A stretch of 64,000 nucleotides of DNA. Source: Legionella saoudiensis. GTDB taxonomy: Bacteria; Pseudomonadota; Gammaproteobacteria; Legionellales; Legionellaceae. Location of the stretch: assembly GCF_001465875.1 (NCBI RefSeq), contig NZ_LN901323.1, forward strand, positions 498,501 through 562,500. Direction: 5' to 3'. The translations under genes and the position numbers were made by a program. How positions within the stretch are numbered: the stretch's first letter is position 1; every line of letters begins with the position of its first letter. Positions 18,082 through 51,773 of this stretch are shown here, in pieces. The notes below the pieces were generated by a model, which saw only the letters and a list, made by a program, of their open reading frames with translations, made no database searches and was not told where the DNA came from.

Positions 18082-18176
18082 AGTAAGGGTAAGAGCCTTC
18101 ATTGCTGCTCTCAAGTCCTCACTCCGAACGCAGGCCTCTGTACAGGCTGGGGTTTACTCACTGCGTCGGGATGGTG

Positions 18177-18335
18177 GTAAGCGTTCACGCTGTATGTATT
18201 CTATTAAAGTTAATAAAAACTGCTGTCATTGCGAACAAAGTGAAGCAACCCAGTACGGAGTCTTAACGAAGCATCGTTTTGGAGGGCTTCGCCATGGTTC
18301 GCAATGACTAATTTACCTATCTCGTGAACGCTTAC
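18177..18335. mobile_element. MITE-like element, copy 1, with IS66-type ends
   Basis: A 159-bp element bounded by perfect 13-bp inverted repeats, GTAAGCGTTCACG at the left and its complement at the right. It is flanked by an 8-bp direct repeat, GGATGGTG, at 18169-18176 and 18336-18343. It has no open reading frame. IS66-family insertion sequences are known for GTAA-type ends and 8-bp target duplications, so it looks like a non-autonomous derivative. The interior carries the TCATTGCGAACAAAGTGAAG palindrome family. It fills much of the 333-base gap between the nucleotidase gene and polA. Compared with copy 2 it has a 9-base insertion near 18208. Confidence 0.82.
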
Positions 18336-18414
18336 GGATGGTGTTAGGTATTTCGGCCACCCGGAGTTTTATGTTAGGTCGTGACCCAACTACATTTATC
18401 TTAATGCAAGCACC

Positions 18415-49579: not shown

Positions 49580-49684
49580 GGATTTCTCTGGGTTAAGTCA
49601 TCGTACCTAATTTTTGCAAAAATTATATAAAATCGTAAAATAATGGTACACTGCCTGGGTTTAAACCCCAATGCCGTGTATTTT

Positions 49685-50287
49685 ATGTTAGAAAATCCTT
49701 ATGCTAAAGCAGTATTTTTAAAAAGCGCCGCGCGAGTAACCCATTTGCCTGAAGATACTGGCTATGAAGTGGCTTTTGCTGGGCGTTCCAATGCTGGGAA
49801 GTCCAGTGCGTTAAATTGTTTAACCGGTATTAAAGGCTTGGCCCGCACCAGTAAAACACCAGGACGAACGCAATTAATTAATTTATTTTCCCTTGATGAA
49901 GAACGCCGTTTGGTGGATTTGCCCGGATATGGTTACGCTAAGGTTGCTTTGCAAGTAAAGATGGAGTGGCAAAAGCATTTGGCTCATTATTTGGATGTCA
50001 GGCAAAGTTTAAGGGGTTTGGTGCTCTTAATGGATGTGCGGCATCCTTTAAAAGATCTGGATCAAATGATGATCGATTGGGCTTTGAATCGTGAATTACC
50101 CGTGCATATTTTATTGACTAAAGCAGATAAATTAAGTCGCAGTGACGTCAAAAATACAGTTTTAAAAGTGCGGAAACATTATGAGCTTGCCAGCCATTTA
50201 ATCAGCGTTCAAGCATTCTCTTCTTTAAAAAAGGAAGGCGTGGATGAATTAATTCTTTTGTTGAATCAATGGCTAAACTTGCACTAG
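49685..50287 (+). CDS. engB: Ribosome biogenesis GTP-binding protein EngB/YihA
   Basis: A 200-residue GTPase. The ATG at 49685 ([15 protein letters not shown]) is chosen because the earlier ATG lies in the promoter. The G1 loop is [12 protein letters not shown], the G3 is [10 protein letters not shown] and the G4 is TKADKLSR. It assists assembly of the large ribosomal subunit. The coding frame is followed by a hairpin terminator whose T-tract contains one target duplication of the MITE copy at 50347. Confidence 0.92.
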
Positions 50288-50315
50288 GTAAGACCGCACT
50301 ATCCTAAGAGTGTGA

Positions 50316-50342
50316 CCTGGTTGCTTGTACCAGATTTTCTTT
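50316..50342 (+). terminator. Terminator of engB
   Basis: A CCTGGTTGCTTGTACCAG hairpin followed by ATTTTCTTT. It is a variant of the recurrent CCTGGTTGCTTGCAACCAGG hairpin. The T-tract overlaps the 8-bp duplication CTTTAAAC next to the mobile element. Confidence 0.65.
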
Positions 50343-50346
50343 AAAC

Positions 50347-50496
50347 GTACACGTTCACGCTGTATGTATTCTATTAAAACTGCTGTCATTGCGAACAAAG
50401 TGAAGCAACCCAGTACTGAGTCTTAACGAAGCATCGTTCTGGGTTGCTTCGCCATGGCTCGCAATGACGAAATTTACATAGCTCGTGAACGCTTAC
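50347..50496. mobile_element. MITE-like element, copy 2, with IS66-type ends
   Basis: A 150-bp element nearly identical to the copy at 18177. The right end is the complement of GTAAGCGTTCACG and the left end is GTACACGTTCACG, with two changes. A perfect 8-bp direct repeat, CTTTAAAC, lies at 50339-50346 and 50497-50504. The interior palindrome (50385-50468, GTCATTGCGA...CGCAATGAC) is better preserved than in copy 1. It carries no gene. It lies in the gap between engB and the downstream unknown gene. Confidence 0.85.
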
Positions 50497-50551
50497 CTTT
50501 AAACGATAATTTAATCGGCATGTTATCTTATATTCAGGTAAGCGGCACTCA

Positions 50552-51697
50552 TTAACCTGCATGAATTTGCAATGTAGAATCACGAGCTGGTTCATCCTGC
50601 ATTTTTGCCAATTCTTCTTTATATTGATTAACTTTTTCACGAGCCTGATCCGCCATAATGCTCCCACCAATACTACCCATCATTTTAACGGTATCATTGA
50701 CGGCTTTAAGACCTTGTGTCACAGCGGCGGCAGTAGAACTTATTAGCCCTTGGGTTATAAGCCCTCCGGCACCCATCAATGCCATGCTGGTACCTACTAA
50801 TGCGGTGGTAGCCAATTCAGTAGGAGTAGGGGCCGCTCCAAAGCGAATAAGATTATAGAGCATAACTCCTACGGTTTTTAAGGCCAAAGGCACACCAATC
50901 GCCATACTAATGCACGTAGCTACCAGGGCAATAGGGCCCATTATAGGGGCTAATGGAGGGATAAGCGTAAGAGCGGTAGCACCAATGGAAATAAGCGATG
51001 CGGCTAATGCAACCTTAGAGCCATAATATTCATAATTATTTAAGAATTTTGAAAAATTACGAGTAGATTTATTGGCATAGGTGAAGTTGAAATCATTTGC
51101 CTGAAAATAAAAGTCTTGAGCCTTATGCAAATTATGCAGGAATGCCTTTTTTTCCTCGACACTCAAGGGGATGTCTTTAAGGGTGCGCTTGGTTTCTGAT
51201 AAATATTGGTTAAATTCTTTTCTTCTTGATAAAACTTCAAATCTTGAGGAGGTATGTTGAATACCTTCATTTTCCGCCAATTTTTTTAACTGGTTTAAAT
51301 GAACTTCAAGTTTTTGGATATCCTCCATGGTGGCTGGTGTACCTGGGTTATGAAAGGGTTTTTTCAAGAAGTGCAGGCAGGCTGATTGAGCAAATAGTAT
51401 TTGTCCGAAGAGGATAATGCTATCTAAGTGTTGTTGCTTTTGTTTTTTTTGCTCTGGACTGAGCTCGCTGTGATTAATTCTACTTCGTAGCTCCTTGACA
51501 TATGCTTGCTCCTGCTCAGTAAATTCGACTTTTGTAGAAGGAGTATCAATACGTAATGCTGGAGCCATAAATTCTGGACCAAAAAGTATATTTGTGCGGT
51601 TAGTAATTTCACTATCCGGAAATACACTACGCAATTGCTTTCTTACTTCCTCGGCTATCGAAGCATAGTCTTCTTTATGCAAGGTCACTTTAAACAT
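50552..51697 (-). CDS. Membrane protein of unknown function with long helical N-terminus
   Basis: A 381-residue protein starting at ATG 51697 (MFKVTLHKEDYASIAEEVRK); the frame extends four codons upstream to a TTG. The N-terminal about 200 residues are polar and helical, rich in Lys, Glu and Gln. Residues about 225-335 contain hydrophobic stretches (LAASLISIGATALTLIPPLAPIMG, LVATCISMAIGVPLAL and LATTALVGTSMALMGAGGL). The C-terminal tail is polar with KVNQYKEELAKMQDEP. The layout resembles some Legionella host-membrane-targeted effectors, but I recognise no family. Confidence 0.65.
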   Translation of the reverse strand: MFKVTLHKEDYASIAEEVRKQLRSVFPDSEITNRTNILFGPEFMAPALRIDTPSTKVEFTEQEQAYVKELRSRINHSELSPEQKKQKQQHLDSIILFGQILFAQSACLHFLKKPFHNPGTPATMEDIQKLEVHLNQLKKLAENEGIQHTSSRFEVLSRRKEFNQYLSETKRTLKDIPLSVEEKKAFLHNLHKAQDFYFQANDFNFTYANKSTRNFSKFLNNYEYYGSKVALAASLISIGATALTLIPPLAPIMGPIALVATCISMAIGVPLALKTVGVMLYNLIRFGAAPTPTELATTALVGTSMALMGAGGLITQGLISSTAAAVTQGLKAVNDTVKMMGSIGGSIMADQAREKVNQYKEELAKMQDEPARDSTLQIHAG

Positions 51698-51773
51698 AAA
51701 CTGTCTCAAATAAAAGCATGCGGTAATTTAATAATACAGCTTTTGTGGAAATAGATCCAGCGTTATGTTCATA

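What the first reader, a model, noticed from the sequence alone, without database searches (positions are those of the whole stretch)
50347..50496. Second copy of the same MITE with its own 8-bp duplication
The copy is nearly identical to the first outside a 9-base indel. Its flanks are a different perfect 8-mer (CTTTAAAC), so it inserted independently. The insertion split the T-rich tail of the engB terminator, which could change read-through toward the neighbouring gene. Two independent insertions with matching duplication lengths are strong evidence for transposition rather than segmental duplication.
Basis: seen in the sequence. Interest (0 to 1): 0.75.

Follow-up and report, generated by a model that had tools for sequence, protein, structure and literature searches.

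The report
Legionella jumping repeat with IS66-like ends
A 150-base stretch of DNA behind a ribosome-assembly gene is one copy of a small jumping element without its own enzyme; its ends look like those of the IS66 family of mobile elements, it carries a widespread palindrome inside, and it sits mostly where two neighbouring genes end against each other.

Summary
Window 50347-50496 is a 150-bp element with inverted ends and a perfect 8-bp duplication (CTTTAAAC). The other copy, 18177-18335, has its own duplication (GGATGGTG). They are 87% identical, not "nearly identical". Of the 30 best matches in this genome (a Legionella), 20 keep both ends, and 11 of these match at 7 or 8 of 8 flanking bases, in an exact 8-bp register. 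Ends plus 8-bp duplications fit the IS66 family: two Legionella IS66 elements show 8-bp duplications, and an IS66 remnant has ends that match 12 of 13 bases. No IS66 transposase or TnpB was found in this genome, so the copies look stranded. The interior is a head-to-head pair of CGTC-type REP palindromes, a class reported in 2013 to lack a known transposase. The gap behind engB lacks the element in the two nearest relatives. The insertion did not split the engB terminator: its T-rich tail lies intact before the insertion. Unexpectedly, 26 of the 30 copies lie between convergent genes, against about 20-24% of intergenic gaps. Best reading: an IS66-type MITE carrying a CGTC REP pair, tolerated mainly between gene ends. 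New variant of a known kind.

The parts
50339..50346 (.). left copy of the 8-bp target duplication, CTTTAAAC
   Evidence: scored as L001
50347..50496 (+). the element: IS66-type MITE with a CGTC-type REP pair inside
50347..50359 (+). left terminal inverted repeat GTACACGTTCACG (2 mismatches to GTAAGCGTTCACG)
50385..50413 (+). left CGTC-type REP arm (tag TGTC counting base 50384, tail CCA)
   Evidence: class features read in PMC3733652
50439..50468 (-). right CGTC-type REP arm, head to head with the left one; on the minus strand it begins CGTC counting base 50469
50484..50496 (-). right terminal inverted repeat, GTAAGCGTTCACG on the minus strand
50497..50504 (.). right copy of the 8-bp target duplication, CTTTAAAC
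50317..50343 (+). predicted engB terminator: 5-bp stem and T-rich tail, intact and upstream of the insertion
49643..50287 (+). engB/ysxC, ribosome biogenesis GTPase (TIGR03598, 241.7 bits)
50552..51709 (-). convergent neighbour, 385 aa, no Pfam or NCBIfam match at E<=0.001
18177..18335 (+). the other copy of the element in the window (159 bp)
18169..18176 (.). its left duplication GGATGGTG
18336..18343 (.). its right duplication GGATGGTG

Best explanation
This is a non-autonomous transposable element (MITE) whose ends belong to the IS66 family and whose interior is a head-to-head pair of CGTC-type REP palindromes. Inferred mechanism: an IS66-family transposase acting in trans recognised the GTAARCGTTCACG ends and inserted the element with an 8-bp staggered cut, which gave the 8-bp duplications (duplications shown, enzyme inferred). 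No IS66 transposase was found in this genome, so the family is probably no longer moving here (inferred). The copies examined lie mostly between the 3' ends of convergent genes (shown for 30 copies); the likeliest reason is that insertions elsewhere, which place a strong hairpin in an operon or a promoter region, are removed by selection (inferred). At engB it adds 158 bp between two convergent genes behind an intact predicted terminator and probably changes little (inferred).
For: Repeat family: 52 matches at E<=0.001 in the own genome, counting pieces and reverse self-matches. Duplications and exact 8-bp register. IS66 link: 2 of 12 IS66 loci tested in Legionella relatives gave both ends with perfect 8-bp duplications, ends GTATCCGTTCGG.. 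(G002) and GTAAACGTTCGG.. (G017); in G033 the ends GTAATCGTTCACGCCCC and GTAAACGTTCACGCCCC enclose fragments of an IS66 transposase; in Myxococcus L124 a match to the 22-base end pattern (19 fixed bases) lies 20 bases beyond the stop codon of an IS66 transposase C-terminus. Composite seen in other genomes: of 55 cores kept, 10 have both ends and 5 of these 10 match at 7 or 8 of 8 flanking bases. Absent at engB in relatives. Context: 26 of 30 convergent against 61 of 259 gaps, 20.1% by length.
Against: No autonomous IS66 with these ends over their full length on both sides was found in Legionella; the Myxococcus match shows one end only, and in G033 no duplication survives and an IS110-like frame (name recalled) interrupts the element. 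Seven of 20 copies with both ends show 5/8 or fewer matching flank bases. Both nearest relatives carry core-like sequence in the gap of copy 1, at another place and without these ends, and G002 has a similar REP-like palindrome behind engB without these ends (seen by eye), so movement of REPs without the ends is not excluded. The convergent bias could be target choice and not selection; joined target sites fold no more strongly than random sites in convergent gaps (13 sites, p=0.43).
Confidence: 0.82

Rival explanations
1. The element is a REP palindrome family that spreads on its own by an unknown or RAYT-like enzyme, and the IS66-like ends are flanking sequence picked up once.
For: Cores without both ends are common: 45 of 55 cores kept from other genomes lack one or both ends by the threshold used, and short arm matches occur in 15 of 369 gammaproteobacterial genomes outside the family. 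Core-like sequence lies in the copy-1 gap of both relatives, and a REP-like palindrome behind engB in G002.
Against: In copies with both ends the 8-bp duplications begin exactly at the ends, not at the core, so the ends bound the transposed unit.
Confidence: 0.1
2. The copies arose by segmental duplication or recombination between repeats.
For: Two copies in one window in the same orientation.
Against: Their flanks differ and each has its own 8-mer.
Confidence: 0.02
3. The element is kept because it is useful, as a two-way transcription barrier or 3'-end stabiliser between convergent genes.
For: 26 of 30 copies between convergent genes; strong fold, z -7.2; one column pair is C-G in 23, U-A in 22 and unpaired in 10 of 55 sequences; on the minus strand a T-rich linker starts 5 bases after the large hairpin.
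Against: No T-run directly follows the large hairpin on either strand, and the scan found no terminator-like site inside the element. Covariation is modest and relatedness is not controlled. The element is not at the orthologous places in the two nearest relatives.
Confidence: 0.2

Closest known systems
IS66 family insertion sequences
   Same: Ends beginning GTA.NCGTTC and 8-bp duplications in Legionella IS66 elements; 8 bp is also listed for two IS66 elements in PMC3281130 (passages read).
   Different: No transposase gene; 128-166 bp (20 copies with both ends) instead of about 2.4 kb; no IS66 transposase found in this genome.
QMITE2 of Coxiella burnetii (PMC5896051; section 8 and passages including the abstract read)
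   Same: MITE of 150-190 bp with 7-11 nt flanking repeats that differ from copy to copy, a REP inside, and short REP-like copies without ends.
   Different: QMITE2 carries a GTAG REP; this one carries CGTC-type arms. Sequences were not compared; the parts I read give none.
CGTC-tagged REPs (PMC3733652; abstract, section 15 and passages read)
   Same: CGTC/TGTC tag, CCA tail, head-to-head pairs.
   Different: Reported without an associated transposase, and the word Legionella does not occur in the main text; here the pair sits inside a unit with IS66-type ends.
MITECca01 of Cardinium (PMC9769881; passages read)
   Same: IS-derived MITE in an intracellular bacterium.
   Different: About 240 bp, IS982-family parent, intact copies of which are still present in that genome.

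Membership tests
MITE | short, no coding capacity, inverted ends | tested here: met
   the only frame of 90 aa or more overlapping the element starts outside it
MITE | target-site duplication | tested here: met
   11 of 20 copies with both ends at 7/8 or 8/8
MITE | many dispersed copies | tested here: met
MITE | mobilised by a transposase that recognises its ends | not testable with these tools
   no transposition assay; only end similarity
IS66-derived | ends match those of an IS66 element | tested here: met
   12 of 13 bases with either end of the IS66 remnant in G033; one end in Myxococcus
IS66-derived | 8-bp duplication | tested here: met
IS66-derived | autonomous parent with the same ends in the same genome (usual, not required, for a MITE) | tested here: not met
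   PF13007 and PF05717 have no match in G000; of 4 weak PF03050 matches the 3 examined are IS6 transposases
CGTC REP | CGTC or TGTC tag and CCA tail | tested here: met
   definition read
CGTC REP | stem of 8-9 bp, loop of 4-5 | tested here: inconclusive
   each arm gives up to 5 pairs, a mismatched stretch, then 2 pairs; the paper's figure of consensus stems is not held
CGTC REP | head-to-head pairs predominate | tested here: met
   the aligned cores are head-to-head pairs by how they were found, so this shows the arrangement, not its frequency

The most novel reading that the evidence does not exclude
CGTC-type REP palindromes, whose spreading enzyme was reported missing when they were described, are in this bacterial family the inner part of IS66-type MITEs; end-less REP pairs are decayed MITEs, and IS66 transposases are the lost engine. 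A strong filter then leaves them between convergent genes.
Probability: 0.2. Interest if true: 0.7.

Novelty: new variant of a known kind. Interest (0 to 1): 0.42.

Why it matters
The 2013 survey of tagged REPs (PMC3733652) left open which enzyme, if any, moves the CGTC class. A unit with IS66-type ends and exact 8-bp duplications around a CGTC pair gives one concrete answer that can be tested in sister strains. The convergent-gene bias makes the family a natural probe of where a bacterial genome tolerates small hairpin insertions.

Tried and rejected
Rfam scan of the window: no match at the gathering scores. Paper searches for the core sequence, for a Legionella MITE and for IS66 or CGTC REP MITEs; judged by titles and abstract starts, none listed a description of this element. 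The library lacks most subscription papers. A 2024 review of prokaryotic MITEs (PMC10969869, passages) holds neither IS66 nor Legionella in its main text. The four PF03050 matches in the own genome looked like IS66 at first; three were run and are IS6; the fourth (L033) has the same score and profile range as L032 and was not run. Preference for hairpin targets: not supported. Terminator splitting: not supported. Exact empty 8-mer at engB: unreadable, since the gap has diverged. Second end of the Myxococcus IS66: not found.

Full report
What is there. Between engB (49643-50287, plus strand; TIGR03598) and a convergent 385-aa gene without a family match (50552-51709, minus strand) lies a 150-bp element at 50347-50496, bounded by GTACACGTTCACG and CGTGAACGCTTAC and flanked by CTTTAAAC on both sides. 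A 159-bp copy lies at 18177-18335 between GGATGGTG repeats. The two align at 135 of 155 columns, 11 of them gaps. The element as RNA folds at -61.6 kcal/mol, z -7.2 against 200 shuffles. Rfam has no match in the window at the gathering scores.

Host. A pattern of the ends found, among three records, one titled Legionella longbeachae (a metagenome bin, L122); it gives the same row as locus L245 of G012, on a contig of the same length, 13221, and G012 is listed as the same genus as the window's genome. I therefore call the genus Legionella.

Family in this genome. A search of the 3.84-Mb genome gave 52 matches at E<=0.001, which include pieces and reverse self-matches; 40 of 87 first-look candidates were scored, so this is a lower bound. 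The 30 best (95 bp or more) became loci L001-L030. Of these 30, 20 have both ends within 3 of 13 mismatches. Their flanking 8-mers match at 8/8 in 6 copies, 7/8 in 5, 6/8 in 2, and 5/8 or less in 7; 380 cross-pairings gave one at 6/8 and none higher. Shifting the right flank by one to three bases drops the mean from 5.8 to 1.85-2.85 matches. Lengths of these 20 run from 128 to 166 bp. Over the 190 pairs of these 20, median identity is 92%, the highest 97.3%, the lowest 76%, so there is no sign of a very recent burst.

Ends. A pattern of the ends with 19 fixed bases found 3 stretches in the species-level collection, which may leave out the window's own genome: the Legionella bin, a Granulosicoccaceae bin where none of the listed frames looked like a transposase to me (judged by eye), and a Myxococcus contig in which the pattern starts 20 bases beyond the stop codon of a 146-aa open frame. 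That frame has no Pfam match at 0.001 but matches the last 60 positions of NCBI's IS66 transposase model at 58.6 bits, below the whole-protein cut-off of 180, as a fragment would; in plasmids 22 records match it, and 8 of the 12 rows shown are annotated as IS66 transposases. The other end of that Myxococcus element was not found. Within Legionella, 2 of 12 IS66 loci tested gave both ends with perfect 8-bp duplications: GTATCCGTTCGGTGAAATAC (19/20 between its ends) and GTAAACGTTCGGCTAAATAC (20/20). In G033, GTAATCGTTCACGCCCCTTG and GTAAACGTTCACGCCCCTTG bound a 2565-bp stretch with IS66 transposase fragments, interrupted by a frame that looks like an IS110 transposase (recalled name), without a surviving duplication. 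So the start of the ends and the duplication length are those of IS66 elements in the same genus; the exact parent was not found.

No engine found in this genome. PF13007 and PF05717 have no match in the own genome. PF03050 has four weak matches, 23.5-29.8 bits; three were examined and are IS6 transposases. In the genus 32 of 45 genomes match PF03050, a count that includes such weak matches.

Interior. The 84-bp core is two arms head to head, TGTC-ATTGCGAACAAAGTGAAGCAAC-CCA and, on the other strand, CGTC-ATTGCGAGCCATGGCGAAGCAAC-CCA (alignment). This fits the tag, the tail and the head-to-head pairing described for CGTC REPs in PMC3733652 (abstract, section 15 and found passages read; [quoted passage not shown] One search listed 74 cores; I aligned 58 of them (16 left out by eye, mostly for odd length). 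For the long hairpin, 89.7% of 1422 cells pair; one column pair is C-G in 23, U-A in 22 and unpaired in 10 of 55 distinct sequences. Three of five measures exceed all 500 shuffles; the other two were reached by 71 and 66 of 500, and relatedness is not controlled. The short local hairpins pair in 86.8% of cells, and none of the five measures stands above the shuffles.

Spread. With the whole element as query 24 of 45 genomes of the genus match and 75 of 143 of the order, in 20 of 33 genera; many of these matches cover only the core. With the core, 17 of 369 genomes of the class match, two of them in the own family and most of the rest over 24-30 bases of one arm. From other genomes I examined 63 cores; after dropping 5 duplicate loci and 3 rows of one partly masked tandem array (G018), 55 remain. 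Ten have both ends, and five of these match at 7 or 8 of 8 flanking bases. L241 and L242 from two species have flanking frames of the same lengths and similar flanks, and L180 and L240 look alike in the same way; these may be inherited insertions counted twice.

The engB gap. The window is syntenic in the two nearest relatives G013 and G020, in blocks 78-90% identical. The unaligned stretch behind engB is about 74 bp in G013 and 211 bp in G020 and holds no core or element match. Its sequence has diverged, so no exact empty target could be read. Of 30 engB loci of the genus (30 of the 45 genomes; the window's own included), read 600 bases downstream, only the window's own has a core match or an end within 2 mismatches; G002 has, by eye, a similar REP-like palindrome there that the search did not reach. 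In the copy-1 gap both relatives have core-like sequence near the convergent gene's end, 84 bases at 78.6% in G020 and 28 bases at 85.7% in G013, at another position and without these ends; this weakens the simple picture of one clean insertion there.

Terminator. The scan finds one terminator-like site in 50250-50600, stem 50317-50333 and tail ATTTTCTTTA, against a mean of 0.3 in shuffles. The tail ends before the insertion point, and the duplication kept CTTTAAAC on the engB side. The claim that the insertion split the tail is therefore not borne out; effects on read-through were not measured.

Gene context. With a simple frame caller (100 aa or more, longest first), 26 of 30 copies lie between convergent genes, 4 between tandem genes and none between divergent genes; in a few cases the called frame runs some bases into the element. 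In 464 kb of the same genome (20 stretches of 20 kb plus the window, which holds 2 of the 30 copies) 61 of 259 gaps of 20 bases or more are convergent, 20.1% by length; the binomial probabilities are 5e-13 by count and 9e-15 by length. The 30 copies are the best-scoring ones, not a random sample. In other genomes 38 of 52 cores with both neighbours are convergent, 11 tandem and 3 divergent (3 more have one neighbour only), without a background of their own. PMC3733652 reports that REPs in general lie mainly between tandem and convergent genes; the share of convergent gaps here is high. Joined target sites are not more structured than random places in convergent gaps, and the target 8-mers listed there show no consensus by eye, so I favour selection over target choice, without proof.

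Verdict. An IS66-type MITE carrying a CGTC REP pair, absent at engB from the relatives examined, probably no longer mobile in this genome. Known in kind; I did not find the combination of CGTC REP and IS66-type ends described in the searches named in the field on what was tried.

Noticed in passing
L072 (G018:C31:377577-380660): End-less cores of the same kind stand in a tandem array with a unit of about 135 bp, parts of it masked as N; G469 has a similar run of matches about 117 bp apart.
   Followed up: no
L063, G000:C10:37347: A different small palindromic repeat (GTAGGCTGGGCTGTCAAGCCCAGC...) lies just inside an end-like GTAAGCGTTCGCG; a similar palindrome lies behind engB in G014 (L138).
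   Followed up: no
L227 (G014:C12:218500-221800): Two cores lie close together; the first has a shorter 127-bp form with a perfect TCTCCACG duplication.
   Followed up: no
L269 (G033:C1:873500-877500): An IS66 remnant interrupted by a 355-aa open stretch that resembles an IS110 transposase (name from recall).
   Followed up: partly
L142 (G002, behind engB): A REP-like palindrome (TGTCGTTGCAAGCGTAGCGAAGCAATCCA...) lies within 160 bases of engB, without the IS66-like ends.
   Followed up: partly
window 50552-51709: The convergent neighbour, 385 aa, matches no Pfam or NCBIfam family, yet the DNA across it aligns in both nearest relatives.
   Followed up: no
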